Assembly: GCA_964036045.1 (NCBI GenBank)
Contig: OZ038383.1
Coordinates: 111,077,188 to 111,141,187, forward strand
DNA: 64,000 nt
Reading direction: 5' to 3'
Source: Eutreptiella sp. 'Long Island Sound 2002'
Lineage: Eukaryota; Euglenozoa; Euglenophyceae; Eutreptiales; Eutreptiaceae
This document shows, piece after piece, positions 12,701-48,559 of the stretch. Position 1 is the first letter of the stretch. Every line of letters starts with the position of its first letter. Made by a program: the position numbers and the translations under genes. Under the pieces are notes generated by a model. That model had not been told where the DNA came from and did no database searches. It saw only the letters and a program-made list of their open reading frames with translations.

Positions 12701-14017
12701 ACCGTCACCGAGGCCACCCACAAAAGCACCTTGAACCTATTGGCTCGCAAGCTACGCCCCAAATTGGCACTGGAGGACACGCTCTGGATATACTATGGCG
12801 AAAGCCGCACGGCACGGGTGGCGGACCTCCGCAACATCATCCCCCGCCACATCCAGCGCGCGGTGGGGCCCTTCACCGTGTACGCGGTACCGCACCCCAT
12901 AACAGCCCCATGCACCCACTGCAACCCTCGGTGCGCGCTACCATGCGCAGGCGCTCTGCAGCAACCCCTGCCCACCCCTACCTACAGGGGGGGCATATTC
13001 CTCGGCACGATACCCGGGGACCCACACCCCTACATCCTGCCCGCAGCGGACCGCCACCACGCCATACCGCTACACCTTGTCGAGCACCTGGAGGTGGGAC
13101 CATCTGCCTTCCAGAAGCGCCCCCCCCACACCCCATCCGACGGACGCCCGCCAGATGAGCCGACACACGCCACACCTGGACCCAAACGCGCCATCGCACT
13201 CCTCACCCTAAAGGCGGAAGCCACGATCGCCCAAGAGCTGGAGGGGGAAAACCACCTCATGGTGGAAGGGCTGACGGAACACGTCCTGATCGCAGCCATG
13301 TACGCCACGGCGTCCGCATCCTGCCTCTGGGAGGACCGCCCCTCCCCACCTCTAGCCCAAGCAGCGCAGGACGCCCCGGACACGGGCCCCACCGCCGAGG
13401 ACATCCACCAAATCCTCAACATACGAGCACCCCCGAAGACCCACCCTGCGGTCTGCCCCATCCAGCTCGTCAGCTGGGACGCCATGGACGCCCCTCTGAC
13501 CACCACGGAGGTCCACATCCTCAAACACCGGGACACATGGTGGACGGTGGAATGGGACGACCACGGCAAGGTCAGACGGGCAACGTCACACGCCCCCGAC
13601 GACGAAGTCCCACCCCCACCACGCGGAGGAGACCGCTTGCGACTGGCCGCACGCATCCCCCACGCCCGAGAGGCAGCCTGGGAAGCGCTGCACTACGCCC
13701 TCTACTGGGCGCAGGGGGCGCCAGAAGGCCCCCTCCCCCCGGAACGCACCCCAGCGTGGACACGCCACGCCACCCGCTACACGGCCCACATGCGCCGCCA
13801 CGGGGCAGGCACCGGGCACCGGCTCCTCACCTGCCCCACGGACCCGCCCGACGCCCTGCAGGAGGCCGAGGAAGTGCTTGGCCTCATGACCAAGCAAGTG
13901 TTCCAGCTGAAGGACCCCGTCCCCACGTCCAAGCCCGACGTCCCAGCCGCCCGCGAACACCCCGTGTTTGCACTGGGCCACGCACCCGTACAGCAGCCCG
14001 AGAGCGCACCTCCCTAA
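9728..14017 (+). CDS. ORF1-like protein of the giant non-LTR element
   Basis: There are 1,429 codons from ATG 9728. The first 320 or so residues are P/T/H-rich low complexity, and from an in-frame ATG at 10,691 (MALDIDSLLELEL) the composition becomes balanced, so 10,691 is an alternative start. The remainder has regular hydrophobic spacing, a Cys cluster (CTHCNPRCALPC, about residue 1062) and a W-rich SH3/tudor-like stretch (HRDTWWTVEWDDHGK) near residue 1270. I recognise no named domain and no RRM or esterase typical of LINE ORF1s. By position it should be the RNA-binding or particle-forming partner of ORF2, which is inference. The stop is TAA at 14,015 followed by CGG. The same frame continues open into the next segment with no ATG for 150 bases. 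Confidence 0.75.
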   Translation: MVPPWMRYSPKTPFSQPTRDHHGTHQGDAAKYPPTVRPQHPLPAGNLPRAHPTPEQIAPPPPWKRYTPATHRHSPPAGTAPGPQHAQEAATHRLADPANAIPRTTGPTQRCADTPKHHTTTPPWLRHSSPAHPAPGDPRPHATPTPHGPRTETHQEDDQETTRGCPTPPEDKPRATTHPGRPGQGAPPPQREGHHTAQHHHTAPHPPPPPGGTGHHSPPTQERSRALPTPHPTPPAPPLETPHTSRQLNTHHRPQPEPHTGATPPARTATSVQPHTTTTPNGAPPPAHDSAPAAARAPNTSITRPPCHEAAPQHVNTHADPMALDIDSLLELELQHTEDTEHHIHLTPPELEPTASGPADPSPHNAPPRPPPRERAPWTHLSNALRRHQPTHEASNGPAEYRTSLQHDLPDVTGPGLHGYTTAPPPPGTPTQEWGDEYAVDVTDMTAYVESVEDPERDTVLSLLAYHSWRWCHQVTLHRPQDRPRQWSPEQTAKWDIILQLTPEGFYIPTHSGLPGAAPNARALPLAQPQEDDADAPPPEECNWDPPTATTERMPHRLTKRHLPHDYHATNDSRGRHTLPLQWASPEGTFTWGEILPGTVALTYLWLQDAETHAQPPGTHLLLTLEGEAAVENVHTAEGEDYVTANADTAVWLHAHEHTTPPTVVPGSHPWHVVIVRLPTGADTGSAQQGWADRWAHVCASLHEGLHRPSLTSHTLEPAPTTAESHTGAAPPTGVWAYTRTLHREAAEALKTAISNHQGLVHTPHDNTKKGSTLWLHHPAPEGGLQPPADQPGIGPDLTAITRAVAAMAQQVGAPPQWAPSIIKETAARHNPAFTHFRGRPIHPTLPDLDLPAHDAWAVHILVPHDTAPKTGDATARITKQLPNTALHYDIPTPNVIVTHNTGRDHYYLQATHERSPVTIYTFTTYPGLQPPQHHPRPAWKHPLHVAPTPRKRPAHHAPPPADSTALHTPRRRAAAHHQSDLLPRINAGPGTVTEATHKSTLNLLARKLRPKLALEDTLWIYYGESRTARVADLRNIIPRHIQRAVGPFTVYAVPHPITAPCTHCNPRCALPCAGALQQPLPTPTYRGGIFLGTIPGDPHPYILPAADRHHAIPLHLVEHLEVGPSAFQKRPPHTPSDGRPPDEPTHATPGPKRAIALLTLKAEATIAQELEGENHLMVEGLTEHVLIAAMYATASASCLWEDRPSPPLAQAAQDAPDTGPTAEDIHQILNIRAPPKTHPAVCPIQLVSWDAMDAPLTTTEVHILKHRDTWWTVEWDDHGKVRRATSHAPDDEVPPPPRGGDRLRLAARIPHAREAAWEALHYALYWAQGAPEGPLPPERTPAWTRHATRYTAHMRRHGAGTGHRLLTCPTDPPDALQEAEEVLGLMTKQVFQLKDPVPTSKPDVPAAREHPVFALGHAPVQQPESAPP

Positions 14018-14020
14018 CGG
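14015..14020 (+). promoter_or_regulatory. UAA-CGG: candidate readthrough stop (ORF1 / next segment)
   Basis: TAA is followed directly by CGG, and the frame on both sides is the same. The 51 codons after it are basic (RRRQGAQKRK, KPAPKPRAKPK) and precede the first ATG at 14,171. This suggests translation enters from upstream. CAA-to-TAA mutation is the alternative. Confidence 0.5.
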
Positions 14021-14524
14021 GGACAACCCGCTGCCCGGCGCCGCCAAGGTGCGCAGAAGCGCAAGGCCCCCACACAGGCCAAACCCGCGCCAAAGCCAAG
14101 GGCCAAGCCGAAGAGCTGGACCAAAGAAGAAGCCGCTGCCCTGTATCCCGAATACGCCATCGGCACCCGGGTGCAGCTGCCCTTCGAGTACCCCACGGCC
14201 GCGGGCCCCCCGGAGTGGATATGGGCCGCAGGGGAGGTCAAGCACCGGTACCTCAACACCGGGAACCACCAGGGGTTCAAGATCCACGTCAAGTGGGACC
14301 CGGCCACCCCCAACGACAAGAAGCTGGGGCGCACCATCGAACTCTGGCGAGACCGAACCGGTCGTGAGATGGTCCCCATGCAGCTGTGCACCCCCGACAC
14401 GGAGCACCTCACCGGCACCGAGTACACAGGCGAAGTCCACAATGCATGGGCCCTACCCCAGCCCCAGAAGCGGAACCGCAGGGCAGCCGCAGCTCAGGGC
14501 GTCATCGACCTCCTCGACGCCTGA
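14018..14524 (+). CDS. Small basic/W-rich protein segment between ORF1 and ORF2
   Basis: This is a 168-codon segment in the same frame as ORF1 and ORF2. It starts directly after TAA-CGG and ends at TGA 14,522, again followed by CGG. Residues 1-40 are K/R/A/P-rich. Residues 45-150 look folded (YAIGTRVQLPFEYP, WIWAAGEVKHRYL, FKIHVKWDP, IELWRDRTG), a pattern of short beta strands with aromatic residues that resembles a tudor/chromo-barrel fold, although I cannot name it. The first ATG (14,171) would drop the basic N-terminus. It may be a stand-alone product, an ORF1 C-terminus made by readthrough, or the start of a fused ORF1-ORF2 polyprotein. Confidence 0.65.
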   Translation, partial: RGQPAARRRQGAQKRKAPTQAKPAPKPRAKPKSWTKEEAAALYPEYAIGTRVQLPFEYPTAAGPPEWIWAAGEVKHRYLNTGNHQGFKIHVKWDPATPNDKKLGRTIELWRDRTGREMVPMQLCTPDTEHLTGTEYTGEVHNAWALPQPQKRNRRAAAAQGVIDLLDA

Positions 14525-14527
14525 CGG
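14522..14527 (+). promoter_or_regulatory. UGA-CGG: candidate readthrough stop before ORF2
   Basis: TGA-CGG is in frame. The EEP endonuclease that follows has its N-terminal Asn motif (INILN, about 14,602) upstream of the first ATG (14,666), so initiation there would lose a catalytic motif. Decay of CGA to TGA is the alternative. Confidence 0.55.
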
Positions 14528-17500
14528 GGCCAGGGCCGGACACGGCCCGCCCCCCCAACTACCGGTCCCCGGAAACCGGCGCCTGCGGAAGCCCACGCCC
14601 GCATCAACATCCTCAACGAGCCCGCGGTCACCTACGACCCCACCAAGGCCGCCACACTGCAAGCCATGCCCGGGCCGCACCCCCAAGGCGCAGACCTCCT
14701 GGGGTTCCTGGAGCAAGCCCTCCGCAGAGCGGACCAACCCGAACCAGCACCGATCCTGGACCCGGAGGGGAACAAATATCACGCCCACTGGGAACGGGGG
14801 GTACCCCTCTACCACAAGACGTCGGTCACGGTACATGCCCACCCCGACCTCGGATTGGATGGTCGCCTCGGGGCGTACGAGTGCGTGGGGCCCGGATGGC
14901 AGCTAAACGTGCTACTCACGCACGTCCCATTCGGGGAGGAGACCAAGGACTTCCTGGACACCCTGAGCCTGGCGTACCGCCGACTCTCCCTCCTGGCACC
15001 CACCATCATCATAGGCGACCTAAATGCCGCCCCCACCGACGACGACCGCACCGGCTGACCCACAGCCACCGACACAGCTGTCTGGGACGCCATGCAACAA
15101 CTGGGCCTCACCGACCTCACGGCAGGACTCACCGGCACACCCTCCCATTACCTCCACCAAGCCGGCACCCACCCATCCCGCATCGACATGTGCTACGGGG
15201 ACCCAACCACGGTGCGCGTCCACGAAGCAGCCTACGGGGACCTCCCGCCCACAGGCACGGGCCACCGGCCCCTCTACATCGACCTCATCATCCCCAACCT
15301 ACCCCCACCCGCGGCCACCCTGCCAGACGACACCCTCCCACCCACACTGCAGTTCCCGGCCGAGGACGACCACGGCGCCTGGCACAGGTATAACAGGGCC
15401 CTACACGCCATCCTGCGCCGCCCGGGTGCACCGACACTCACCACCGCCATGCGCCGGGCGGCACAAGCATGCGGCATGGAGCGTGACACCAACCACACGG
15501 GAGCACCACCAGACCTCACCCTCCAGCAACTCGTCCATGACATCTGGACCACGAAAGGGGAACTCGCCACCCTGCTACGCCCCAGCACACCGGAGGCACG
15601 AGACCGGGACGCCCACCTCCGTGCGCTCCTCACCACCCGCCGCCACCAACTCCAGGAATGGCACGCCCACCGCATAGCGGCCGCAGCCCAAGAACGCGAA
15701 AGATACGGCAGAAACGACACGCCGTACAAGTCCCTACGGTACGTCAGCCGCATCCTGGAGGACACGGGGCGCCGTACCATCCACGCGGTACACACCCCCG
15801 AAAGAGGCCTCACCAATGACCCCGACGCCGTCCTCCAGGCAGTCCTGGACAGCTTCCAGGCACAACACGGGGACGCCCTCCCCGAGCTCGACCCCCACAC
15901 CAGAAACACCATCCGCGAGCATGTGCCCAGGGTCTTCAACCGGGAACAGTGGCGCGCCATCGAACACGACCCCTTCAGCATCTCAGATCTGCAACGCGCC
16001 CTAGACCGCCTGAAGAAGGGGGTCGTGCCCGGCGTCGACGGTTTGCCGGCCGAAGCGTACCAACGTCTCACCCTGCCCATCAAACGCCGCCTGGCAGCCC
16101 GCCTGTGGGACATCGTCACGGGCGCCACGCCCATCCCCCCTGAGTGGGCCAACCTGGTCCACCCCCTCTACAAAAAGGGGGACTGGGCGCAGCCGGGGAA
16201 CTGGCGGCCCATAGTCTGCGCCACCACCCAGGTCAAGCTGGCGTGGACGCTCATCCTAGGCCGCATCGCGCCAGCGGTCTTCGCCCACGTGCCCGCCAGC
16301 ATGTGGGGAGCCATGGCCGGCAGGTCCCCCCACGAGGCCATCTTCCTCCAGGACACCGCACTGGACATGAACCCCTACGAGATGATCATCGCCTCCCTCG
16401 ATGTCCAAGGCGCGTTCCCCCACGCCCCACACCGGCTCCTCACGGAGGTATGGGATGCCATGGGCCTCCCATTCCTATCCTTCATGACCGGGTACATCCA
16501 GACCCGACTCTACGCCGTCATCACAGCCGCAGGCCTCACCCCCTGGACCGGCACAGACAGCAGGGTCCCCCAGGGAGGCACCGAAGGCCCCTTCCTCTAC
16601 CTCCTCGTCAGCCTGCCACTGGCATTCGAGCTACCACGGGTATACCCGGGGTACGCCCCATACCCGCTACGGTCCCCCCTCATTAACTTCGCAGATGACA
16701 ACCTCCTAACTACGGCCACCCGCCACCGCGACCCTGAGAGCGCAGGGCTACCAACGACCACCGAACAAGCGTCCGCCATTCTCCAACTCACCACAACCTA
16801 CCTGGACGCCCACCAGCTCCTAGTGCACCCCCGCAAATCAGTCGGGCTGGCCGACGCCAAGACCCCCACCCCCCACATCCGGAAAGGCGAACCCCTACAC
16901 CTGGAAGACACCACAGTCCACCTGGGAGTCACACAGGCCACGCGGCACCACCACATCACACTCCCAAGCAAGCTAGAAGAGCGCCTCGCCCGGCTACCCC
17001 AAATTGCCAGGGGGGACCTCCTGTCTACGCAGGGCCTGGCGTACTTCATGGAAGCAGTGCTCAACGCGGCCATCGGGTACCAAGCCCTGCACCTCCCGCG
17101 CCCCCAAGACGCACTACGCCACGCTCGACAGCAAGTGACAAAGGCATGGGCGCAACACGGAGGCTGGCCCACGTCTTTCCCCAAGGAAGCCATGATGGCC
17201 CACTGGCGCTACTACGGAGACAATACGGGCGCCCTGGTCGACATGGCCTATGCCAAACACGCAGCACACCTCCCACACAGGGTAACACACAACCACCAAC
17301 CAGAAGTTCACGAGGCGGCAGCCATACGCATAAAAGAAGCGCAAATGGCCCGCAACACCTGCCCCCGGTGGATACTGGCGCAACACGGCGTCTCCACCTC
17401 CGTGGGCACGGGCATCTGGGCCCAGCTACAACTCCTCCTACCGCACCACACACACGCCATCCGGACAAACCACCACTGCGATCAACAGGGGCCACTCGTG

Positions 17501-19849
17501 GCCACACACACCGACATCCACCGAAGCCCAGCAGGCGAGGTGGCCACCCTGCGCCTCGTAGGGGCCACCATCACCATAGTGTATATCACCCCAACACAGA
17601 TGAAGATCATGGCCCAATGCGACGCCCACCACGCCCCGTTCCTTTCCGACCCACAATGGCCAGCACGCCACGTCTTCCAAGCGTACCTCCGCGCATGTGC
17701 TACGAAGGCAGGGCGCGACATGCCGGGGCCCAAGGACATCGACACGGCGTACACAGCCTTCCAGCGCCAGCAGCCCCGGCCCCGCCCGAGCGAGCACGAG
17801 ACCCCCAACGACGGCAGCACGACGCAGGGGGAGCCCACGCCGTCAGCCGAAGGCTGGACACCACCCACCATCCTGCTACTAGCACCAAACGGCCACAAAC
17901 ATGCTACCCGCACTGTCCAGCGACACCATGCCCCCTGGTCCATCCCCAAACACAATGCACCGGAGACCGATGTACCACCAGTCAAACACAGTGACCAGGG
18001 CATACCACGCAAGTGCTGGCACTGCGGCCCGGCAGCCGTCGACACTCCGTGGCCCCTGCTGCACCTCATCTCCACCCACTACCGCACCACCACCGCCGCC
18101 GCCACCGCCGACCAGCAGGCATGGCTCTCCCCCTGGTTTCACACGGTACCCCCAGACCACCCGGCGCACGTAGCCTGGACCCGAACACCCACGGCGACAT
18201 GGACGTTCACCAACGAGCGGGCAGACCCGGACAGCGTAGCCATGGAGTACGACCGCTGCGACCCACACCGCGCAGGACCTCAGGAGGCACCCATGCGCCC
18301 CCTACAGCACAAATGCCCCACCCTCCGCGGCGACAAAGACGACAAGGAGCGGCGACAGACCACCACGTGCCAGAAGTTCCACCAGCATACGGGATACCTC
18401 TTCCACCTGATGTACGCGTATATCACCCAGGGACGCCCAGACAGGGGCCTCCTCCGCCTCACCCCACGAGCCCAGGCCATCATCACCCAGGGGATAGGCG
18501 TCTATGCAGCGCCACTACTGCAACCCACGCAAATCACCGCCAGCACCGCCCATGGGAACCCCATCTACGTCTATCACCCCACAGCAATCGCCCGCCTACC
18601 CATACCCAGCGACACCGACATCATCTACTTCACTGACGCACCCGGCACCCAGCAACGCACCCCCACGGTCAGTTGCGCCTCCGTGCGCATCACCCGGCAC
18701 GCGGACGGCCTCCACGTGGAACACCACACCGGGGCCACCATCTTTGGGGCGTCCTCCCACGGCGAACTGCGCACCATGGCAGACGCCGTCACCGCCACAC
18801 CGGCACCCACGACGATCCGGCCCCGCAACATCTGGGTAGTCGTGGACGCCACGGTCGACATCCACCTCACCAGGCGCCTTGCGGACATGCCCCTCCACAA
18901 AGCACTCGAGTCCGGCCTCACCACACAAGCGTTGGGACTATGGATGGCCTTCAAGGGCATGCACCCCCAGGACGCCCTACACATCGTCAAACAGGAGTCA
19001 CACCGCTACGCATACGGCAATGGACGCGCAGACACGCAGGCCAAACACCAGAACACCAACTACACCCCAGGGCTCCAACGCGTGCGACTGGACACCCCAC
19101 ACCACAGCCACCTGCAGCACCTGCCCCCGATACCCCCGGCCACACAGCCCCCCCAATGGATGCCCGAGGACACGCCGTACACGGATCGAGACAAGCAGTA
19201 CCACTACCCCACACCCATCCAGCAACTGGCCACCACACTGGGCCGCCGAGCGAACACCGAACTCCTCCGACGCCTCGAAGACTCCGTCCACACCCCCCTC
19301 TACTACTCCGCCCTGCGCCCGGATAGCCTCCCAGCACACCTACAAAAGCCCCGACTCCAACTCGCCCTCCAACAACTTCCCCTCCTCACCCGATACCACC
19401 GATGGTATACGCGCCGCTCGATCCACGTCCCCGCAGGACACACCAAATGCATCTGCAGCCACGCGGAAGAAGAAACATGGGACCACTTCAAGGCGTGCCC
19501 CCTGTACAGAGGACTGGACACCCTCACAGACTGGAACCCAACCCACACCATCGCACAGCACGCCAGATGGCTGGCGCAGTCCCCGGCGACCCAGCAACTC
19601 ACCACCGTCCTCAAGCAGACGGAGGTGCTGGAGGCAGTCCGCAGGGGACTCGTCCCCACTGCCGTCTACACCTTGCTACGCACCCACGCGGAGGACCCCC
19701 AGGCCACGGTGGCGCACATGCAGCGGACGGCCGTTGCCAAGACGGCGGAGCAGCTCACATACCGCAACCACAAATACCTGCAGCATGCGGCAACCCTGCC
19801 CCCAACAGACCAAGCCCACCTCCTCAAACTCCTGTTCTACCAACCATGA
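14525..19849 (+). CDS. ORF2: EEP endonuclease - reverse transcriptase - RNase H - zinc knuckle
   Basis: About 1,774 codons, counted from 14,525, carry out target-primed reverse transcription. EEP endonuclease: INILN (Asn about 30), FLEQ (Glu about 63), GDLN (about 164), SRID (about 218), GHRP (His about 247). RT: NWRPI, then motif A DVQGAFP (about 626), motif B VPQGGTEGP and motif C FADD (about 722). RNase H: FTDAPG (about 1369), SSHGELRT, VVVDAT and GNGRAD (about 1499). A CxC...H...C knuckle (CICSHAEEETWDHFKACP, about 1643) lies near the C-terminus. All catalytic motifs are present. One in-frame TGA at 15,056 (followed by CCC, not CGG) splits the EEP domain between GDLN and SRID. It looks like a mutation (CGA to TGA?), so this copy is probably inactive unless that stop is read through. 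The terminal TGA (19,847) overlaps an ATG as ATGA. Confidence 0.92.
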
Positions 19850-19951: not shown

Positions 19952-20563
19952 ATGCACTCCCACCAGCATGCGCGCGCCACCAGCCCCCATCCCCCCACGC
20001 CGCCGTCCGTCCACAGGTACCACCAACCACCAGCCACCGCATGTCCCCTCTGCGTTCGCCAGCGGCTACCACAGACAGCCCTGCCCTGCAACCCAGACCA
20101 CTGGGTCTGCCTGGGAGCCGCGCACCGCCTCACCCACTGCCCCCACTGCGGGGGCCTCAACCCCCGCCACCGCGAGCGGCCCGCGGCCCCAGCCGCACCC
20201 CCCCCCGCCAGCCACCCCAGCTTCTTCGGGTTCCTCACCGACACCCTCCGGGACCACCTGGGAGGCTACTACGTGGCGGACGCGGCGGACCACGCATGGA
20301 CCATAGCCGTGGCCACGGGCAGCACACCCCTGCCCCCCCACAGCCCACCCCTACGCCACAGCGGAGGCGGCTTGAACGTGGCGGCCCGCCACATCCTCCT
20401 CGCCCTATACCTCCACCACCGAGACCTACACCTCCCAGACCCACAACCCCCCGCCCCCCAAGCAGCAGCTCTGACGCCGGAAGCGTGGGCCGACACGGCA
20501 CCAGAGGAGATAGCAGCCAACCTCCGAATCACTTGCCGCCGGTTCAATCACGCCCTCGGCTGA
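19952..20563 (+). CDS. Zinc-ribbon-like protein downstream of ORF2
   Basis: This is a 203-codon frame, same phase as ORF2, from the ATG at 19,952. Two CxxC pairs (ACPLC, Cys 31/34; HCPHCGG, Cys 63/66) make a likely zinc-binding ribbon. A folded-looking stretch follows (FFGFLTDTLRDHLGGYYVADAADHAWTI shape, then AARHILLALYLHHRDL). The family is not recognised. An ORF after the RT ORF is unusual for non-LTR elements. It ends TGA 20,561 followed by CGG, and the frame continues with sensible sequence lacking an ATG for 140 bases. A competing open frame (19,402-22,632, frame 1) is low-complexity and judged spurious. Confidence 0.65.
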   Translation: MHSHQHARATSPHPPTPPSVHRYHQPPATACPLCVRQRLPQTALPCNPDHWVCLGAAHRLTHCPHCGGLNPRHRERPAAPAAPPPASHPSFFGFLTDTLRDHLGGYYVADAADHAWTIAVATGSTPLPPHSPPLRHSGGGLNVAARHILLALYLHHRDLHLPDPQPPAPQAAALTPEAWADTAPEEIAANLRITCRRFNHALG

Positions 20564-20566
20564 CGG
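20561..20566 (+). promoter_or_regulatory. UGA-CGG: candidate readthrough stop
   Basis: TGA-CGG is in frame. The next codons encode ordinary protein (PLSALLYPAHHL, EGWASFRDAHLAAPDE) before the first ATG at 20,705, so coding seems to run across the stop. Confidence 0.5.
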
Positions 20567-22054
20567 AAGGGAACACCTTACCCACTCAGCGCACTCCTCT
20601 ACCCGGCACACCACCTCCACCCCGCACAACAGAAGCCCCCGGAGGGCTGGGCGTCTTTTCGGGACGCCCACCTGGCCGCACCCGACGAGGCCACCGCCAC
20701 GCGGATGGGCCTCACGGACCAGGAAACCTACGTCAGAGGCCTCAAGACGAGCCTCCAAGAGGCACAGCGCTGGCACGCCCGCTCCCCGTCGCCCCAACGG
20801 GTACAGGGGGGTTCACCCAGCCCCGACACCCACCAGGCCAAGAAGACCAAGACAGGTCAGGGGGCCCGCCAACGCGCCCGCCAGCAGGGCGTGACGCCCC
20901 GACCAAGGCCCGGGTCCAGCCACACCGCACCACCCCACGCCCAGACCCCCGGGGCACACCAACAACACCACCACCGCCAGCGCCCACCACACCCACCGTA
21001 CCGCAGCACCCAAACCCTGCAGCCCAGTCAGCCACCACCGCCCACACACGTCCACACCATGCCAGGACCACCATACGCGCAGAGCCAGGGGACATGGCAC
21101 CACCAACACCACCACCACGCCCCCGTCCCTCCCAACCCCTACCCCCTAATACCCCCATGCTACAGCGACCCCCACCAGCTACATCCCCACCACGCCCAAG
21201 CACAACCAGGCCCCGCGAACCACCCACCTCACATAGCGCACATCACCGCACCACACCATCACGTATTCCACCACCACCAGCCCCTGCCACCACACCCACC
21301 AACGCCGGGGTACCACACACAACCGGCACACCCTCCACACCACCACCACGCGGTCCAGCACCACCCGCCGCCCCCGCTACACGGGCCCACGACATACGAG
21401 CCACGGTACACCCCCATGGACCCGCGAGGAGCCGCGCACGCACACCAGCAACACCAGGGCCTAGTAGGAGCGACCCACCACCACCAACAGCCCCCCCACC
21501 CACACCCCATACCAGCGAGCACCATCCACCAGCAGCCATCCATCACATACGGACCACAGCCCGGCCGGGGGGCTCATGCGGCCGCCTCCCACCCGCACCC
21601 CGGCACCACAACCAGTCAAGAACCGCAAGGGCCACACGGCGCACACACGCAACACCCACACGACCCACAGGGACGCCCGGACCCCCAGCCAGCACAACAC
21701 CCATCCCCGCCCCCCCCGGCCCACCACCACCAGCAGCCCCCCCACCCACACCCCATACCAGCGAGCACCATCCACCAGCAGCCACCCATTACATACGGAC
21801 CACAGCCCCACCTGGACGCTCATGCGGCCGCCTCCCACCCACACCCCGGCACCACAACCAGTCAAGAACCGCAAGGGCCGCACGGCGCACACACGCAACA
21901 CCCACACGACCCACAGGGACGCCCAGACTCCCAGCCAGCACAACACCCACCCCCGCCCCCCCCACCACCAACAGCGCCACCCCCACACCACCCCCCCCCC
22001 CCCCCGAGACCAGGCCACGGACACAACACGCGGCAGCCAGCACCAGCCAATTGA
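20564..22054 (+). CDS. His/Gln/Pro-rich protein segment
   Basis: This segment is in frame with the zinc-ribbon segment. The first 65 residues or so are ordinary (ALLYPAHHLHP, WASFRDAHLAAP, MGLTDQETYVRGLKTSLQEAQRW), then comes a basic stretch (KKTKTGQGARQRARQQG), then about 350 residues of H/Q/P-rich sequence with a two-copy 82-residue repeat. Histidine clusters (HHHHAVQHH) suggest metal or nucleic-acid binding, which is speculation. The frame closes at TGA 22,052, soon after a run of 15 C (21,991-22,005). Past that run the convincing protein is in another frame, so the true gene probably crosses there and this copy has a homopolymer indel. Confidence 0.5.
   Translation, partial: RKGTPYPLSALLYPAHHLHPAQQKPPEGWASFRDAHLAAPDEATATRMGLTDQETYVRGLKTSLQEAQRWHARSPSPQRVQGGSPSPDTHQAKKTKTGQGARQRARQQGVTPRPRPGSSHTAPPHAQTPGAHQQHHHRQRPPHPPYRSTQTLQPSQPPPPTHVHTMPGPPYAQSQGTWHHQHHHHAPVPPNPYPLIPPCYSDPHQLHPHHAQAQPGPANHPPHIAHITAPHHHVFHHHQPLPPHPPTPGYHTQPAHPPHHHHAVQHHPPPPLHGPTTYEPRYTPMDPRGAAHAHQQHQGLVGATHHHQQPPHPHPIPASTIHQQPSITYGPQPGRGAHAAASHPHPGTTTSQEPQGPHGAHTQHPHDPQGRPDPQPAQHPSPPPPAHHHQQPPHPHPIPASTIHQQPPITYGPQPHLDAHAAASHPHPGTTTSQEPQGPHGAHTQHPHDPQGRPDSQPAQHPPPPPPPPTAPPPHHPPPPPRPGHGHNTRQPAPAN
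21483..21975 (+). repeat. Two-copy in-frame tandem duplication, 246 bp
   Basis: ACCAGCGAGCACCATCCACC recurs at 21,511 and 21,757, exactly 246 bp (82 codons) apart, and similarity spans the whole unit. It lies in the His/Pro-rich segment and keeps frame. Confidence 0.85.
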
Positions 22055-25319: not shown

Positions 25320-25329
25320 TAGGGGGGGA

Positions 25330-28922: not shown

Positions 28923-28929
28923 GATCTTG

Positions 28930-33709: not shown

Positions 33710-33794
33710 CTTCAGTCGCCCTTCTGCTTATATGTGCCTGTACTCGGCGCACTGGATGTACGGCGCGGGGTTGCTGCCGGTGCGCAGAGACAGA

Positions 33795-33810: not shown

Positions 33811-34598
33811 GAAAAGTTTATAGTGGTTTCAACACTGTGTTTTTGTCTCTCCGGCTGCTTGCTGCTGGTGTAGGGTTTCCTGCTGCTTGTTTTTGGAGAT
33901 CAAAACCTTTTGTTTGCTGAAACATAGTCAATCCAGGATAACCCAAGCCGGAGGTGTGCAAGGAGAAGAGAATCAGGATCAAAGCATGAAGGGCTGCAGT
34001 GTAAACAGTGAAAGATGAAAGGATATTCACAGAAACTGCAACTCAGGTCAAATCGGATTGCATATTCACAAAGATAGCTGAAATGTTTTGGAAAAGAGTT
34101 GGAAAACTGCCCCATGGTCACTCTATCTCCATAGTGCCATCTCAGGAGATGTGCACTCTTTGTTTTGGGTCCCATATGTGCTGAGGTGGCAGGGCATGTG
34201 GCGATGAGGTCACTGCCATGTCACATGGGATCTTCCTACTTAGCTAGGCTGACCAGGAATTGAACCCAGGACCTCTCAAAAAGAGGTGCCCAGCCCCCTA
34301 GGGTGCATACCACTAGGACAGCTAAGTATTCATGGAAAAACATAGATAAATTCATAGGCTCTGCCTTGGATATGTCAGTTCTCAGTCAACTCAGGAAAAG
34401 ATGATTTGCCTCACATTGAAAGGGGATTAAGGGGTCCACTCCATATCCTGATTGGGTGTTTGGTTCCATAGGTCAAAATGTGTTATCACCACGTTTGGTG
34501 GGACCAATACTAAGATAAAAATGCCTTGATGCTCAGTGCATCCCTAATACAACTAGAGTATGCCTCAAAGCATTGGAAAAGCACTTTTTCTTACTGAG
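33811..34598 (-). repeat. Dispersed repeat copy B; candidate 5' LTR of gypsy 1
   Basis: It is the inverted counterpart of 1-711 and lies directly upstream of the PBS-like site and gag, where a 5' LTR belongs. The sense-strand 3' edge reads CTTTTC before TGGTAGCA and not the usual CA, so the LTR assignment is uncertain. The far edge is placed at about 34,598, where gypsy 2 gag homology starts. Confidence 0.6.
34243..34325 (-). other. tRNA-like segment, copy B
   Basis: This is the reverse complement of the tRNA-like box at 183-260, with the same B box (GGTTCAATTCC) and the same ACCTC/GAGGT anticodon-like stem. Confidence 0.5.
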
Positions 34599-34600
34599 GG

Positions 34601-35883
34601 AGCTGGACATTGCCAAGATCGAAATGGTCAAGAGCTCCGAGGTCGCCACCGCCACCCAGAAGCTGCTGGACATCGCCAGGGGCGAGACCAGGCAGCTGAA
34701 CAAGGTCATCAGCGGCCTGCAGCAGAGGCTGGATGCGCTGGAAGCCCGTGGGAGCGTCGGCAGCGACCACCCACCCCTGGAGTCTGGCTCGTTGGACGAC
34801 GGCTGGGGACCCGGACCAGGTCCAGGCAGACCCCACGCCCCCGGCGGAGCCCCCAGGAGTCGCCCCAGCGCCAGTGCCCCCTCTCTCACCGCCCCCTCTC
34901 AGCACAGCGCGGGCCGCCGCAACGAGCGCGTGCCGCCCGGCAGTGGCAGTGAGGATTGGCGTGATGAGTGGCTCAGCGCGGAGTACCACAACCGCCGTGC
35001 TCCACCGCGGACACCGGTACGCCCCCGACGCCCCGCACCAGCCCTGGAGCCCATCCCAATGGCTGGTGGACGTTATGGTGGACTCAGGGATGAGGTGCCC
35101 AGAGGAGACGTGGACTGGGATGTCGGCCGAGGTGAGGACCTGGACCTGGACCTGGAGGAGTTCGACATGTCCCCGCCGCGCGGTGTACGACGGGAGGCCG
35201 CTGAACGCAGCCGCCGGCGCCGTGATGAGGAGGCATACATGGAAGCAGTACGGCGTGAACATCTAGGTTCGGCGTACATGGAGGAACCACGGCGTGGCCT
35301 CGCAGATATCGGTGAGGAGATGGAGGTGGCAGCCGTGGGAGTCCGTGGGAGAGGTCGATGGGAACCTCGGTCGACCTCACGGCCGGCGTTCATGGTCTCT
35401 AAGGCCGCGGATGCCGCCGTGTGGGAAGACCTGAAGGACATCAAGCCCCCCATGTACGATGGAAACCCTTCCAACCTCGACCGCTTCTTGGAGAAGCTGG
35501 ACGATTGGGGGGTGACCGTCACTGAAGACATGGATCCCGCAGATGCGGACAAATATGTCTTCAGCCGGTTCAGGTACCGCCTGCCGGAAGTGCTCCAAGA
35601 GCTATACTTCGTGGCGACCAAGGAGGGGAAAATCAAGACCCTCAAGGAAGCCAAGAAGTGGCTCAACGAGCAGGAGCGGGTGGACGCTCCGCAGGTGGCT
35701 TTTTTTTTTTTTGCACTGAACGGCGCCTTTTTGTGGCTGGCCAGGCCGCAGGTGGCTGCCAAGCGGTGGAAGTCCATCAAGCTTCAGCATGATGGACGGG
35801 AGATCCGCCTACGGGACTGGCGAGACTTCCGAGGGCAATACACCCTCTTCCGCCGCAACGTGGAGGACTGGAACGAGGGTGAG
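34601..35883 (+). pseudogene. gag: Gypsy 2 gag, first fragment
   Basis: It matches the element 3 gag from ELDIAKI onward: coiled-coil end, S/P-rich middle, and the capsid-like core starting IKPPMYDGNP. A 57-base in-frame insertion (35,689-35,757 including duplication) adds 19 residues with four Phe in a row. The frame is lost near 35,881 by an 11-base deletion relative to element 3, inside the core. Confidence 0.85.
35689..35757. mobile_element. 45-bp retroposed fragment with poly(T) and 12-bp duplication
   Basis: CCGCAGGTGGCT occurs at 35,689-35,700 and 35,746-35,757. Between them are 12 T and then GCACTGAACGGCGCCTTTTT plus 13 more bases. Element 3 has a single CCGCAGGTGGCT-like site with no insert. 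Read on the minus strand, the insert is a short unique sequence ending in poly(A) between target-site duplications, the hallmark of LINE-mediated retroposition. Confidence 0.75.
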
Positions 35884-36244
35884 CCTGCTCTCCATGCTGC
35901 CGGAAGCATGGATCAAGAGGGTCACCAAGGACGAAGCCAAGAGAGCCAAGTCCAACCACACGGTCAAGATGATGCTCCCCAAAGAGTATCATACGAACGT
36001 GGTGGCTTGGACGAGGAAGAACGTGGCCCGGGTTGTCAAACGGCACTCCCTGCGGAACGCTCTCCTCATCACCGTCTCGGGCGATCGCGAGAAGACCGCG
36101 ATGTGGCGCCTTGACGAGTGTGACGTGAGCGGCCAGACCATCCGTCTGCAGGCCATCCCGGCGCGGATGAGCTGCGACGAGATCCTGGAGTGGGTTGGAG
36201 AGGAAGTACTCAAGGAGTACCGGAACCTCCACCACACCCGCTGA
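35884..36244 (+). pseudogene. gag: Gypsy 2 gag, second fragment
   Basis: It continues the gag core (LPEAWIKRVTKDEAKRAKSNHTV to EYRNLHHTR) in frame 2. It ends where about 20 bases present in element 3 are deleted near 36,241, creating a TGA. Confidence 0.8.
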
Positions 36245-36890
36245 CGTCAACTACGTTGGCGAGGGGCCTGGCGGGGAAGCTGCCATGGACCCAGCAGGAG
36301 CCGATGGCGATGAAGCTCTCGTCGACGATGACGACAACGATGAGCCCGCCGAGATGCCCGTTTGTGCCCTCGTGGCCCACAACGGCGCGGGGAGCAACCG
36401 GGGAAGCTGGAAGCCCCTGCAGCCGGGTTGGAAGAAGAAGGAGAAGAGGGACCCTCGCCGCATTGGCGACCCTCCGCTGTCCTTTGGGGAGTTCATACGA
36501 CCTCACCCTCAGGGCTGTTTCGTGTGTTATGGTAGGAAGAAAGGCTTCAACCATGACCACTGAACATGCCCCACCCACCAGGCCGACACGGAGGCATACA
36601 AGAAGGCGCACGGGTCGAAGAAGCGTGCACCTGCGGGTATCCGGGAGGCCAAAGTGGAGGTCGACAAGGACGAGCTCTCCAAGCTGATGTCGGTGGGGAC
36701 CGAGTTAGCCAAGGAGATCCAGGAGATCAAGAGGAACTGGGTCCCCAGGTCGGACAACAAGAACAAGGAGAACAAAGAGAATGACCAGAACAAGGACAAG
36801 GACAAGAAGCCTAGGAATAGGAGGAAGAAGGGTATCAACGAGGTTGATGCCGAGGAGAATACCCCTACTTCCACAACCGATGCCCCCTAG
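36245..36890 (+). pseudogene. gag: Gypsy 2 gag, third fragment with zinc-knuckle-like motif
   Basis: Frame 0 carries an acidic stretch (ALVDDDDNDEPAE), then a Cys/His motif (CFVCYGRKKGFNHDH...C) split by TGA 36,561, where element 3 has CTA. A K/N/E-rich C-terminus follows, to TAG 36,888. TAG-CGG at its end is identical to element 3. Confidence 0.8.
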
Positions 36891-36893
36891 CGG
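36888..36893 (+). promoter_or_regulatory. UAG-CGG readthrough site between gag and pol (gypsy 2)
   Basis: The gag stop TAG is followed by CGG, and pol continues in the same frame with no ATG at its start. The hexamer and its surroundings are conserved in element 3 (48,554-48,559). Confidence 0.7.
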
Positions 36894-39800
36894 AGCCCCT
36901 GCTGCCAAGGGCCCCAGCTAGGGCGGTCGCAGGATGGTGTCGTGGGAAGCGCCACACCATCCCAGTCGGGAGTCAATAAGCACAAAGGGACTGCCGCGGG
37001 CGGAAGGCCCGGACCGGCACCCAGTCGCGGAGGCGGGGTGAGGGCAAGTGATGGCACGAACCCTTGCACCCGTCCATCCTTCGCGACCAAGAATGTGTTT
37101 GATGTACTTCAAGATCTATCCGAGAGTATCGGAGGATCACCCAGACCGCAGCTGGATGCTGCAGATGGGCAGCCTGAGCCCATTGTCCAGGACCTGCACC
37201 AGTCGCTTGTCGAGCTTCTGGAACGGCCGGAGATCCTGAGCTTGCACGCCGTGCGCCGAGTTGGGCGTGAGCGGCAGTTGCACCTTAAGGTCCGTGCCTT
37301 ATGCGGGGAAGTGGAGAAGGTCTTCGACGTGTTGGTCGACACGGGCGCTCAGGTCAGCTTGGTCAAGGCTGGCCTACTTCCGCCAGAGTGTTTGACCGAC
37401 AGTCGGAAACCTGTCAGGCTGAAGGTGGCGAACGGCCAGTACATGGTGGGAGGCACGAGGGAAGCGGCCATTGGGCTGCAGTTTGTGAACCACCTTGAGC
37501 TGAGCCGCCCAGACCTCGGCAAGGAAATCCTCCTGCAAGGTCGCTTCTACGAGGCCGAGATGGACTGGGACATGATCGTTGGGTACGACTTCATGATGGA
37601 GACGGACTCCGGCGTCCTCCCGGCCCAGGCCTCCATGACCCTGTACCAGGACGACCAGCTCTCGTGGCTTTCGTCACCTGAGCACCATGTGGAATGCCAA
37701 TGGATCCACCCCAAACGCAATCAGCTCGAAGTAGCCGCGCTGGACACTGAGCCAACTGGGCCAGCAAACCAGGAGTACGGCGTAATGCCGGAAGTGGCGA
37801 GCTGAGTGGTTGCGGACCTGGGAGCTTCGGATCTGGCCCTGGATGCGTTCTCTTCAGGAACCTCCGCCCATCTTCGGATTTGTGAGAAGTACTGCAGCGC
37901 CCAGGACTCCGCGTGGAAGAAGCACTGGGGTCCGCATCAGGGATTGATGTGGATCCATTGCCCCCGTTGGGACATTCCAAGGGGGATAGCGAAGATTCGC
38001 AAGGAACGCTCCAAGGCAGTGCTGGTTGTTCCTAGGGGATGCACCGAGGAGGGAAGTACCCGACATTGGGTAGTCTCATTGACCAACATGACCTTAAACA
38101 GGGTCTTCCTACCGGCTGGAGAGAGTGTCTATCAGGACGCTAAGGGACAGCCCATGCCACCCCAGAGATGGCCAACGGAATTCCACTATGTGGATCGGGG
38201 CCTTGATCAGGCCGACACCACGGACTTCGTGTGTGTCAACCGTATCATAGCGGAGCCATGGCGGCAATGTTTCGCGGTTTCCCCTGTTGACATCGGAGAA
38301 TCGGAAGTCCCCCTCACGGAAGAGGAGTTGGATCTGGTTCAGGGGTATATGGATCAGCCCTTTCACGACTGGGGAAGCCAGCGTGATGGCAAAGGCCAGG
38401 ACAAAGCCTGGTGGGAAGTGGACTCCATCGTCTCCGGTTCCTATGATGGGAATACCTTCGTACAGGGGGTGCTGGACTACATGTCCAGCCAGGACGAGCC
38501 GATTGGCGGTAACCCAACCACCTACGGCGATCTGTTCCGAGGCAAGACCAGAGATGGTCCTTTGGGCCACCTGGGGAGACCACCTGAGCCGAAACCGAGC
38601 GGGGTCGCTACCCCTCAAGTAAGCTCAGTGGTCCAGGAGCCCGGAAAAGCCAAGGCGGAGTCCGATGATTGCCCCAAGATCCAGGCATTGAGGGCCAGGC
38701 TGAAGCAGAAGTATGGGGACACCTTCTTGAGCGGAAAGCCTGTATTTCCCCCACCGGTGCGTGGACCGTATGGCGAGTCCAAGATACGACTGAAGCAGGA
38801 CCCCCGTGTGTATCGGCAACGGGAGTTTGCCCAGAGGGGCGAGAGGAAGGAGGCCATGGAGAAGATCCTCCGTGACTTCATTGAGAGAGGCTGGCTCGAG
38901 CCGTGCCACTCCGAATGGGCCTCTCCGTGCTTCGTCGTCCCCAAGAAGGTGGCGGGTGAGTGGCGACTCGTGGTCGACTACCGCGGCCTAAACGCCCAAA
39001 CGCAGCACGACAGCTATACGCTGCCCCTCATTGAGGACATGCTGCAAAAACAACACCGGCGGAGGATCTTCACGGTGATTGACCTGAAACATGGTTATCA
39101 TCAGATGCCTCTCGCCGAGGAGTCCCGTGCCTGCACAGCCATGAGCACCCCACTTGGACCTCTCCAGTGGAAGGTGATGCCCATGGGCGTTACCAACGGC
39201 AATGCGGCTTTTCAGCGGATGCTGGAGAACCTGCTTGAGCCGGTGCGTGACTGTGCGGACCCCTTCGTGGACGACGTGATCATCGCGTCCGGGGACCCCA
39301 GCATGAGCTACGAGGAGCTCCTGGAGGCACATGAGAGGGACGTCACTCGAGTGCTGGACCTTCTGGTTCGGCACAAACTCACGGGCAGCAGTGACAAGGC
39401 CACCATTGCGGTGAGCGAGGTGGTCTTCGCTGGCCACGTAGTCGGGAACGGGCAGCGAAAGCCCATACCTGGCAAGGTGGCCGCAATCGAGCACTGGGAA
39501 AAGCCCAAAACGGTCTCTGAGCTACGGGCGTATCTGGGGTTCTGCAACTACTACTCGGGGTATATCAAGATGTATGCCGAGTATGCAGCCCCCATGACGA
39601 CCATGCTCAAGGGCAACCGAGAGGAGACCAAGAAGGGGTCCAAGAAGGCTCTGGTCTGGACTGAAGAATCCGACCGTGCCTTTGAGGGGATGAAGCAGGC
39701 GCTGCTATCCGCAGTGGGTCTGCACCTCGTGGATCCCGACCGAGGGTTCGTCCTGCGCACCGACGCTTCCGACTACGCCGGTGGCGCTGTGTTAGAACAA

Positions 39801-41867
39801 GTGCTTGACGATGGGAGGCACGTGCCCGTGGCCTTCTGGAGCCGAGTCCTGGCGGAAGGCCAGAGACGGACGTGGACGCCCCGAGAAAAGGAGGCGTATG
39901 CCATCGTCATGGCTCTCAGGAAATGGGCTGGGTACATAGCCCTCCATCCTGTCACCGTCTGCACCGACCATCAGAGTCTGCAGTCGAGGCACAAGGAGCA
40001 CGTGGACACCCCCTCTGGTCCCGCCTCCCGACGGGCAAGATGGCATGAGACCTTGGCCAAGTTTGACCTCACGGTTGTGTATATTCCTGGAAAGATCAAC
40101 ACCGTGGCGGACTGTCTCAGTAGGTGGGCCTATCCCGCCAGCAAGGGCATGACGGATATCTCTGCCCATGGCGATGAGGCTGAGACCGCTGAAGCCAAGA
40201 AGATCATTGAAATGGAGCGCCTGATGGAGGAGGAGGGTGTTAAATGCTTCGTCGTCATGGCTGCGGATGCCCCCCTCGGAACGAGGATGGGCACAGCGGT
40301 CAGAGTACTCGTCCCTGATGGAGCTGAGTCCGACAAGCACCTCTTCCCTGAGTCTTGCCTCCAGGACGACTGGTCCGACGACTACGCCAAGTCTGAGGCT
40401 CTTCAGGCCAAATATAGGGCTGTGACCGACCGTGATGACGGGCAGAAGTGGCCAAAGGGGCTGACTGAGGAAGATGGCAAGCTCTACCGGAACGGTAAGC
40501 TGCTAGTACCGGAGTCCCGAGTGCTCGAGCTTTGTGAAGCTTGGCACCACCACATGCTGCACCCAGGGGTCAAGAAGCAAGCCCTTGACATGCAGCGCCG
40601 GTTCGAGATCGACCATATCGGTCTCCACACCGCCATCAAGAAGGTCAGGAAGGGTTGCTCGGTCTGTCAGGCCTGCAATCCCGATAACCGGAACGTCAAG
40701 GGGGAAGCCCAATGGACTCCGGTTCCTGACCAGCCTATGGAGAGCGTGGCCATGGACGTCTTCTCCATGCCCGAAGTGCACATAGGCAAGGAGACCTTTG
40801 ACTGTGTGGTCCTTTGTGTGGATCGCCACAGTGGCTACGTAGTAGCCGTTCCGGCACGCAAAAAGGGGCTGCTTGCCAAGGAAGTGGCAGTCATGATGAT
40901 TCCTCATTGGCTGACCATCTTTGACATCCCCCGCACCATTTGCAGTGACCGAGGGCCCCAGTTTACTGGTGGCTGGTTCAAGGCCATGTCTTCCCTCATG
41001 GGAATACGTCACGCCAAGAGCGTCGCCTATCTCAGCCGGTCTAACGGCCGAGCTGAAGTGGCTGGACGGCAGCTGTTCGAGAAGCTGCGCAAGATTCACA
41101 TCACCAATCCACGTCGGAACTGGTTTGAGGAGATGTGGCCCGCTCTGAAGGCCCATCATGACACCCCCACTCCGGGTGGTTTGTCCCCGCACCAGACTCT
41201 GTTCGGCAGGGACTTCCTGGGTCGGGGACTTCCCTTGTCTGGTGATGGCATGGCCATGGATGGCAAGGAATTCTTTGCGCGGCAAGAGGCAACGGCGCGT
41301 GACATCCGCCAGCAGCTCGAGAAGGAGCATGCTGAGCGTCAGAAGTCCGCCCCGAGCTCGACAGCGCAGAGGTTCAGGTTGGGAGACCCAGTATGGGTGA
41401 TCAGACCCCGCCCTATGGGCCCCCACCGCACCAACACCTGGTTCACACCCGGAGAGGTGGTCCGCAGGATTGGTGAGGACACCTATCGCATCAAGGTGGG
41501 TCACGGACAGTTCCGGGAGCGCCACGAGAGTCAACTCCGTGTGCGGGAACCCGACCTCCGTGGCCAACATGTGTCCCTGAGCTATGCCGCACATGACGCC
41601 GATTCGGACGACGACTATGCTGAGCAGGACGACTACACAGTCGAGAAGATCCGGGCCAAGCGTCCGAACGCCTCGGCACCCGGACCCCTGGAGTCCAAGG
41701 TTCGTTGGCGAGGCTATGGGCCGTCCCACGACACCTGGGAGCCCGTCTCCTCGTTCGTGCCGCGGATCAATACCCCCTTCATGGACTACATCCGCAAGCA
41801 CAAGACCAAGATCCATGTCTCGGACTTGGCAGCACTCACCCAGGCGATTGCAGCCAGGGGTGCCTGA
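36891..41867 (+). CDS. pol: Gypsy 2 pol: protease - methyltransferase-like - RT - RNase H - integrase - chromodomain
   Basis: One frame of about 1,658 codons is broken by a single TGA (37,803) where element 3 has CGA. Retropepsin: VLVDTGAQVSLV near 37,330. A methyltransferase-like segment (37,820-38,150: LALDAFSSGTS, WIHCPRWDIPRGIAKI, KAVLVVPRGC) lacks the NPPF-type catalytic motif. RT: LVVDYRGLNAQT, FTVIDLKHGYHQ, MPMGVTNGNAAFQ, and PFVDDVII near 39,262. RNase H: RTDASDYAGGAVLEQ near 39,757. Integrase: HHMLHPG...CSVCQAC, MDVFSMPE, CSDRGPQFTGGW, NGRAEVAGRQL. The chromodomain KVRWRGYGPSHDTWEP lies near 41,700. The nonsense change sits between protease and the methyltransferase-like part; otherwise the gene is intact. 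The stop is TGA followed by TCA. Confidence 0.95.
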
Positions 41868-46540: not shown

Positions 46541-48556
46541 GCACGGCTCAAGCCAGCCTCTCTCGATGAAGTCACGGAGGATCTTCTCCATGGCCCCCTT
46601 CCTCTCGCCCCTCAGGGCAAACTCCCGGTGCCGATACACACGGGGGTCCTGCTTCAGTCGTATCTTGGCCTCGCCATCCGGTCCACGCACCAGTGGGGGA
46701 AACACAGGCTTCCCGCTGAAGAAGGTGTCCCCATACTTCTGCTTCAGCCTGGCCCTCAATGCCTGGATCTTGGGGCAATCATCGGACTCTGCCTTGGCTT
46801 TTCCGGGCACCTGGACCACTGAGCTTACTTGAGGGGTAGCGACCCCGCTCAGCTTCAGCTCAGGCGGTCTTCCCAGGTGGCCCAAAGGGCCATCTCTGGT
46901 CTTGCCTCGGAATATGTCGCCGTAGGTGGGTGGGTTACCGCCGATTGGCTTGTCCTGGCTGGACATGTAGTCCAGCACCCCCTGCACGAAGGTGTTCCCA
47001 TCATAGGAACCGGAGACGATGGAGTCCACTTCCCACCAGGCTTTGTCCTGGCCCTTGCCCTCACGCTGACTTCCCCAGTTGTGAAAGGGCTGATCCATAT
47101 ACCCCTGAACCAGATCCAACTCCTCTTCAGTGAGGGGGTCTTCCGATTCTCCGATGTCAACAGGGGAAACCGCAAAGCATTGCCGCCATGGCTCCGCTAT
47201 GATACGGTTGACACATACGAAATCCGTGGTGTCGGCCTGACCAAGGCCCCCATCCACATAGTGGAATTCTGTTGGCCATCTCTGGGGTGGCATGGGCTGT
47301 CCCTTAGCGTCCTGATAGACACTCTCTCCAGCCGGTAGGACGACCTTGTTTGAGGTCACGTTGGTCAATGAGACTACCCAATGTCAGGTACTCTCCTCCT
47401 CGGTGCATCCCATGGGAACGACCAGCACTGCCTTGGAGCGGTCCTTGCGGATCTTCGCTACCGCCCTTGGAATGTCCCAACGGGGGCAATGGATCCACAT
47501 CAATCCCTGATGCGGACCCCAGTGCTTCTTCCACGCGGAGTCCTGGGCGCTCCAGTACTTCTCACAAACCCGAAGATGGGCGGAGGTTCCTGAAGAGAAC
47601 ACATCCAGGGCCAGATCCGAAGCTCCCAGGTCCGCGACCACTCGGCTCGCCACTTCCGGCATTACGCCGTACTCCTGATTTGCTGGCCCAGTTGGCTCAG
47701 TGTCCAGCGCGGCTACTCCGAGCTGATTGCGTTCGGGGTGGATCCATTGGCATTCCACATGGTGCTCAGGTGACGAAAGCCACGAGAGCTGGTCGTCCTG
47801 GTACAGGGTCATGGAGGCCTGGGCCGGGAGGACGCCGGAGTCCGTCTCCATCATGAAGTCGTACCCAACGATCATGTCCCAGTCCATCTCGGCCTCGTAG
47901 AAGCGACCTTGCAGGAGGATTTCCTTGCCGAGGTCTGGGCGGCTCAGCTCACGGTGGTTCACGAATTGCAGCCCAATGGCCGCTTCCCTCGTGCCTCCCA
48001 CCATGTACTGGCCGTTCGCCACCTTCAGCCTGACAGGTTTCCGACTGTCGGTCAAACACTCTGGCGGAAGTAGGCCAGCCTTGACCAAGCTGACCTGAGC
48101 GCCCGTGTCGACCAACACGTCGAAGACCTTTTCCACTTCCCCGCATAAGGCACGGACCTTAAGGTGCAACTGCCGCTCACGCCCAACTCGGCGCACGGCG
48201 TGCAAGCTCAGGATCTCCGGCCGTTCCAGAAGCTCGACAAGCGACTGGTGCAGGTCGTGGACAATGGGCGCAGGCTGCCCATCTGCAGCATCCAGCTGCG
48301 GTCTGGGTGATCCTCCGATACTGTCGGATAGATCTTGAAGTACATCAAACACATTCTTGGTCGCGAAGGATGGACGGGTGCAAGGGTTCGTGCCTTCACT
48401 TGCCCTCACCCCGCCTCCGCGACTGGGTGCCAGACCGGGCCTTCCGCCCGCGGCAATCCCTTTGTGCTTATCGAATCCCGACTGGGATGGTGTGGCGCTT
48501 CCCACGACACCATCCTGCGACCGCCCTAGCTGGGGCCCTTGGCTGCAGGGGCTCCG
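46541..48556 (-). pseudogene. pol: Gypsy 3 pol fragment: protease - methyltransferase-like - start of RT
   Basis: It is in frame with gag after TAG-CGG. Protease: LVDTGAQVSLVKAGLLP. The methyltransferase-like segment matches element 2, again with HCPRWD in place of an NPPF motif. An in-frame TGA at 47,384-47,386 replaces the CGA of element 2, a second independent CGA-to-TGA nonsense change in this family. RT is lost after IERGWLEPC, and the apparent stop at 46,538 is supplied by the neighbouring LTR's TCA end. No ATG lies near the start of the frame. Confidence 0.9.
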
Positions 48557-48559
48557 CTA
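48554..48559 (-). promoter_or_regulatory. UAG-CGG readthrough site between gag and pol (gypsy 3)
   Basis: Gag ends TTDAP, then TAG CGG, with pol in the same frame. It is identical to the site of element 2. Confidence 0.7.

What the first reader, a model, noticed from the sequence alone, without database searches (positions are those of the whole stretch)
14015..48559. Shared stop-CGG readthrough code in three unrelated retroelement families
Six in-frame stops are followed directly by CGG: UAA 14,015; UGA 14,522; UGA 20,561 (non-LTR element); UGA 31,210 (gypsy 1 gag/pol); UAG 36,888 and UAG 48,559 (gypsy 2 and 3 gag/pol). In every case the next protein continues in the same frame and has no ATG at its beginning. 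All six are at protein boundaries. Final stops of the same elements are followed by TCA, ACC, GAA and CCC. Stops that look like damage (15,056; 23,028; 23,307; 36,561; 37,803; 47,386) are followed by CCC, GTG, CCC, ACA, GTG and CAT. UGA-CGG is an established leaky context in furo- and pecluvirus-type viruses. Use of all three stops with CGG across LTR and non-LTR elements of one genome would be a host-wide recoding habit I do not know of.
Basis: partly seen in the sequence, partly recalled or inferred. Interest (0 to 1): 0.92.

Follow-up and report, generated by a model that had tools for sequence, protein, structure and literature searches.

The report
Leaky stops between retroelement genes
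Three retroelement families in this genome keep a stop codon, each time followed by the letters CGG, between two genes in the same frame, which fits a known trick for making a little of the second protein; but two of the six reported sites are ordinary damage and a fourth family does it without CGG, so it is no genome-wide rule.

Summary
The six stop-CGG strings are in the sequence. Copies in the same 2.28-Gb assembly split them. UGA-CGG 14522 (non-LTR ORF1/endonuclease-RT): 96 of 100 listed copies are UGA-CGG, 99 keep a stop. UGA-CGG 31210 (gypsy 1): 20 of 20 copies. UAG-CGG 36888/48559, two copies of one family: stop 30 of 30, CGG 28 of 30. But UAA 14015 and UGA 20561 are private damage: 0 of 19 and 0 of 16 aligned copies have a stop. 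So UAA drops out, leaving three families, the two gypsies distantly related. At 14522 the 47 codons between stop and first in-frame AUG evolve as coding sequence in that frame; in both gypsies the protease DTG motif precedes the first AUG. This fits programmed readthrough of the known type II context. A fourth family (gypsy B, 539 places) keeps an in-frame gag/pol stop followed by purine codons: 97 of 100 listed keep a stop, none has CGG, and the stop switches between UAG and UGA. A host-wide stop-CGG rule is not supported; CGG shared by an LTR and a non-LTR lineage remains notable. No translation was measured; the host is unidentified.

The parts
9119..14521 (+). non-LTR element, ORF1 region (stop-to-stop stretch; true start not set); the in-frame stop at 14015 inside it is private damage
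   Evidence: P0156 runs through 14015 and ends at 14521; 0 of 19 copies have the 14015 stop
14522..14524 (+). UGA, junction stop ORF1/ORF2
   Evidence: 99 of 100 listed copies keep a stop; 20 of 20 fetched copies TGA-CGG
14525..14527 (+). CGG after the junction stop (type II context)
   Evidence: follows in 97 of 100 listed places, 96 of them behind TGA
14525..19846 (+). non-LTR ORF2: endonuclease (Exo_endo_phos) and reverse transcriptase; in-frame stop at 15056 is damage
   Evidence: PF03372 E 9.7e-05, below its cut-off; PF00078 E 3.5e-14; P0121 and P0122 cross 15056
19952..21900 (+). third ORF of the same repeat unit (end approximate, frame change near 21.9 kb); the stop at 20561 is private damage
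   Evidence: ATG and base periodicity; 16 of 20 copies align at the expected spacing, 0 of 16 with a stop at 20561
31211..33727 (-). gypsy 1 gag-like ORF
   Evidence: no Pfam match
31208..31210 (-). UGA, gypsy 1 gag/pol junction stop
   Evidence: 20 of 20 copies
31205..31207 (-). CGG after the gypsy 1 junction stop
   Evidence: 20 of 20 copies
26283..31207 (-). gypsy 1 pol: protease, RT, RNase H, integrase, in two overlapping frames in this copy
34519..36887 (+). gypsy 2 gag (damaged copy)
36888..36890 (+). UAG, gypsy 2 gag/pol junction stop
   Evidence: 30 of 30 copies keep TAG
36891..36893 (+). CGG after the gypsy 2 junction stop
   Evidence: 28 of 30 copies
36891..41864 (+). gypsy 2 pol: protease, RT, RNase H, integrase, chromodomain; in-frame stop at 37803 is damage
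48560..53149 (-). gypsy 3 gag region (same family as gypsy 2); in-frame stop at 51493 is damage
48557..48559 (-). UAG, gypsy 3 gag/pol junction stop
48554..48556 (-). CGG after the gypsy 3 junction stop
46541..48556 (-). gypsy 3 pol, 5' part (stop at 47386 inside)

Best explanation
At three junctions (non-LTR ORF1/ORF2 UGA-CGG, gypsy 1 gag/pol UGA-CGG, gypsy 2/3 gag/pol UAG-CGG) the stop is a working part of the element: most ribosomes stop and release the structural protein, and a minority read the stop as an amino acid and go on in the same frame into the enzyme part, which sets the ratio of structural to enzyme protein. CGG right after the stop is the leaky context known as type II. Shown here: the stop is kept across copies, the frame is kept, and the sequence after the non-LTR stop is under coding constraint before any AUG. 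Inferred: that readthrough happens, that CGG causes it, its rate, and the amino acid put in. The sites 14015 and 20561 are damage and do not belong.
For: Stop kept in 99 of 100 listed places, 20 of 20, 30 of 30, while other in-frame stops of the same elements are private. Same frame in 4 of 4 families, gypsy B included. Between the 14522 stop and the first in-frame ATG (47 codons) pN/pS is 0.44 in frame against 0.98 and 1.67 in shifted frames; the endonuclease match starts at profile position 22 at residue 44, before the ATG at 48 leaves room for the domain start, and three proteins of a diverged sister family align from residue 30. Protease DTG lies at residue 28 (gypsy 1) and 150 (gypsy 2), the first ATG at 50 and 185. 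UGA-CGG is the type II motif (PMC3542737, passages).
Against: No translation data. pN/pS is 0.90 in the first 150 nt after the gypsy-2 stop and 0.84 in the last 150 nt of ORF1. No common 3' RNA structure is shown. The copies are young (mostly 94-99% alike), so keeping a stop is partly shared descent. One listed place lacks the stop and one database protein, P0129, reads a residue there. UAG is not the usual stop of the type II motif. In a yeast reporter the similar Tca2 junction gave no readthrough (PMC2194720).
Confidence: 0.72

Rival explanations
1. The downstream frame is started on its own: ribosomes reinitiate, or enter internally, at a non-AUG codon after the stop.
For: No AUG near the stop does not exclude a non-AUG start; Tca2 shows that such a junction can mislead, having a promoter in it (PMC2194720, passages).
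Against: A fresh start could use any frame, yet 4 of 4 families keep the same frame, and three of them carry CGG.
Confidence: 0.15
2. A short in-frame intron over the stop is removed in some RNAs.
For: None found; not testable here without RNA.
Against: Coding constraint directly after the 14522 stop and after the gypsy-1 stop (pN/pS 0.39, 25 variants) leaves little room, but the gypsy-2 region is weaker (0.90).
Confidence: 0.05
3. UGA and UAG are sense codons in this host.
For: Two stops stand inside otherwise continuous frames.
Against: Elsewhere in intact copies the frames avoid stops: the RT search lists many open frames of about 1658 aa, and single copies gain stops at places where the other copies have none.
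Confidence: 0.02
4. All six are decay or chance, and CGG is a coincidence of how the stops were picked.
For: True for 2 of the 6 sites, 14015 and 20561.
Against: The other three junctions are family features kept in nearly all copies read.
Confidence: 0.03

Closest known systems
Type II viral readthrough (furo-, peclu-, tobra-, alpha- and coltiviruses; PMC3542737, passages read)
   Same: UGA followed directly by CGG, same frame onward
   Different: Here in retroelements; one family uses UAG; the usual 3' extended stem-loop is not shown
Fission-yeast Ty3/gypsy elements Tj1, Tosmo1-3, Tcry1 (PMC10085805, passages read)
   Same: Ty3/gypsy gag and pol split by an in-frame stop in a type II-like context
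   Different: TGA followed by CTA or CTG, not CGG
Tca2 of Candida albicans (PMC2194720, passages read)
   Same: In-frame UGA between gag and pol
   Different: Followed by a purine-rich spacer and possible pseudoknot; reporter negative in S. cerevisiae
Gammaretrovirus type III readthrough (UAG-G with pseudoknot; PMC3542737)
   Same: Gypsy B resembles it: UAG followed by a purine at the gag/pol junction
   Different: No pseudoknot tested; gypsy B also uses UGA

Membership tests
Type II readthrough signal | UGA followed by CGG or CUA | tested here: met
   Non-LTR 14522 and gypsy 1; gypsy 2/3 has UAG instead
Type II readthrough signal | Extended stem-loop starting about 8 nt after the stop | tested here: inconclusive
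   Started 5 nt after the stop, z at 90 nt is -0.96 (14522), -1.33 (31210), -1.75 and -1.89 (gypsy 2, 3); at 200 nt -0.5, -0.17, -2.62, -2.84; a terminal stop reaches -2.39 at 140 nt
Type II readthrough signal | Measured readthrough | not testable with these tools
   No translation data
Ty3/gypsy elements (gypsy 1, 2, 3) | Protease, RT, RNase H, then integrase | tested here: met
   for gypsy 1 and gypsy 2; chromodomain in gypsy 2 only; gypsy 3 pol not scanned past its first part
Non-LTR element with AP-type endonuclease | Endonuclease and RT in one ORF, no LTRs | tested here: inconclusive
   Exo_endo_phos match is below the curated cut-off, but P0121 and P0122 carry PF03372 and PF00078; LTRs and clade were not searched for
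Host-wide stop-CGG recoding habit | In-frame junction stops of the genome's retroelements are followed by CGG | tested here: not met
   3 of 4 families yes; gypsy B 0 of 46 copies and 0 of 100 listed places

The most novel reading that the evidence does not exclude
In this host stop-CGG is the favoured leaky context, and an LTR lineage and a non-LTR lineage came to it separately; the non-LTR element would then be a case of ORF1/ORF2 expression by type II readthrough, which my searches did not show in print. In the same genome gypsy B keeps a stop at one place while the stop and its next codon change fast, as if the leak rate were being retuned.
Probability: 0.35. Interest if true: 0.75.

Novelty: new variant of a known kind. 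Interest (0 to 1): 0.52.

Why it matters
Readthrough between gag and pol is known, but a stop-CGG boundary in about a thousand places of a non-LTR element, with coding constraint before any AUG, would add a way for such elements to make ORF2. Several high-copy families in one genome with different stops and contexts form a natural test set for what makes a stop leaky, and gypsy B shows a stop held in place while its letters change.

Tried and rejected
Rejected: 14015 and 20561 as junctions; 51493 as a third gag boundary; UAA as part of the pattern; 'three unrelated families'; a universal CGG rule. Led nowhere: RNA folds as a common 3' signal; IMG/VR scan for relatives of the pol protein, 101 stretches matched a pattern and none was confirmed; an L1-like family (5 copies) has no in-frame ORF1 junction in the stretch read and says nothing either way; host identity was not established (paper search gave nothing useful). 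Not reached because the genome search was mostly unavailable: junctions of the diverged families behind P0021 (4545 member sequences) and P0130 (758), and whole-genome censuses for gypsy 1 and gypsy 2.
Full report
Observation. The two elements with UAG (36888 and 48559) are inverted copies of one family, and the gypsy-1 pol is a distant relative of that family, about 24% over 300 residues.

Test by copies. The window lies in an assembly of 2.28 Gb in 2205 contigs, unnamed here. For the gypsy-2 family 40 of 3474 candidate places were scored and 30 loci read, the window's own copy included: the junction is TAG in 30 of 30 and CGG follows in 28 (one CAG, one GGG). For gypsy 1, 40 of 940 candidates were scored and 20 of the 39 other places fetched: TGA-CGG in 20 of 20. 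These are the best-scoring copies, so the young and well kept are favoured. For non-LTR 14522 a pattern with an open hexamer found 1042 places with up to three mismatches in the flanks (control, pattern read backwards: 1 and 0); the tool lists 100, all with perfect flanks, which again favours well-kept copies. By my count of that list: 96 TGACGG, one each TGATGG, TGACCG and TGACAG, and one without a stop, TGCCGG.

Two of six are damage. At 14015, 20 copies were fetched, 19 aligned and none has a stop; at 20561, 20 fetched, 16 aligned, none has a stop. Database proteins agree for 14015: P0155, P0156, P0157 and P0159 run through, and P0156 (377 member sequences) ends exactly at the 14522 stop. 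So ORF1 ends at 14522, the endonuclease-RT frame follows (P0121 and P0122, 469 and 425 member sequences, cross the damage stop at 15056), and a third ORF lies downstream in the same repeat unit.

Is the far side translated without its own start? At 14522 the first in-frame ATG is codon 48. Over the 47 codons before it, 20 copies give 16 silent and 18 replacement variants, pN/pS 0.44 in frame against 0.98 and 1.67 in shifted frames; 2 of the 20 copies are flagged there with a stop or indel. The Pfam endonuclease match (below its cut-off) starts at profile position 22 at residue 44, so the start of the domain should lie before that ATG, and three proteins of a diverged sister family align from residue 30 at 46-50%. 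In gypsy 1 the protease DTG is at residue 28 and the first ATG at codon 50; in gypsy 2 at 150 and 185. The gypsy-1 pol side gives pN/pS 0.39 on 25 variants. Results less friendly to the reading: pN/pS 0.90 in the first 150 nt after the gypsy-2 stop, 0.84 in the last 150 nt of ORF1, one listed place without the 14522 stop and one protein, P0129, with a residue there.

Is CGG a rule? CGG makes up 0.6-1.8% of codons in five coding stretches, so three families out of four with CGG is well above chance, although two of the three are related and I compared no set of terminal stops. The fourth, gypsy B, was met independently of CGG, through the RT search (copies picked there for long open frames). 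Its gag/pol junction is an in-frame stop with a purine codon after it: of 46 copies read, TAGAGG 30, TAGGAG 9, TGAGGG 5, TAGAGA 1, TAGGGG 1. A census found 539 places with exact flanks; by my count of the 100 listed, TAGGAG 68, TAGAGG 21, TGAGGG 5, three other stop-bearing singles, and three without a stop; none has CGG. Among six copies read over 1901 nt, 5 of the 6 hexamer positions vary against 61 of 1895 positions outside it. The stop is held while its letters change; I have no explanation for the speed of this change.

Structure. Folding 100 nt from just before the stop gives z -1.8 (14522), -1.0 (31210), -2.3 and -3.4 (gypsy 2 and 3); the two damage sites give -0.25 (14015) and -0.74 (20561), and four control stops -1.39 to +0.41. 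In gypsy 2/3 the stop is part of the predicted stem. Started 5 nt after the stop, nothing passes -1.9 at 90 nt; at 200 nt gypsy 2/3 reach -2.6 and -2.8, while a terminal stop reaches -2.39 at 140 nt. No common 3' signal is shown.

Comparison. The type II motif is defined as UGA followed by CGG or CUA, often with an extended stem-loop about 8 nt downstream, and UAA-CGG is listed for a pomovirus (PMC3542737, passages read). In-frame TGA with CTA or CTG between gag and pol is known in fission-yeast Ty3/gypsy elements (PMC10085805, passages). Tca2 is a caution: its UGA junction gave no readthrough in a yeast reporter (PMC2194720, passages). Searches for readthrough and retrotransposon with UGA CGG (0 papers), with CGG (8 papers), and for non-LTR with ORF2 (3 papers) (listings only) showed no non-LTR case of this kind; the library is partial.

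Verdict. Real junction stops at 14522, 31210 and 36888/48559; damage at 14015 and 20561. Most likely mechanism: programmed readthrough, not measured. No host-wide stop-CGG rule.

Noticed in passing
Gypsy B junction, L101-L106 and L112-L151: The stop hexamer varies between copies (5 of 6 positions) while the flanks hardly do, and a stop is nearly always kept. Unexplained.
   Followed up: partly
19952-21900: A third ORF after the RT ORF travels with the non-LTR element: it aligns at the expected spacing in 16 of 20 copies; its first part is rich in Cys-x-x-Cys pairs by eye.
   Followed up: partly
2356-7355: Long array of a 65-bp GC-rich minisatellite (about 59 overlapping copies reported), with a related 150-bp piece at 25348-25497.
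   Followed up: no
1-715 and 33802-34503: A 0.7-kb inverted repeat, 90.5% alike, on either side of the non-LTR and gypsy-1 region; could be LTR sequence.
   Followed up: no
59135-62196 and 56927-57425: Direct repeats 99% alike (1585 bp, and a 499-bp part in three places) near the end of the window.
   Followed up: no
gypsy 2 pol relatives, P0089: Relatives of the pol at about 50% come mostly from short metagenome contigs and one eukaryote transcript named EG_transcript_113; that this prefix means Euglena gracilis is recalled.
   Followed up: no
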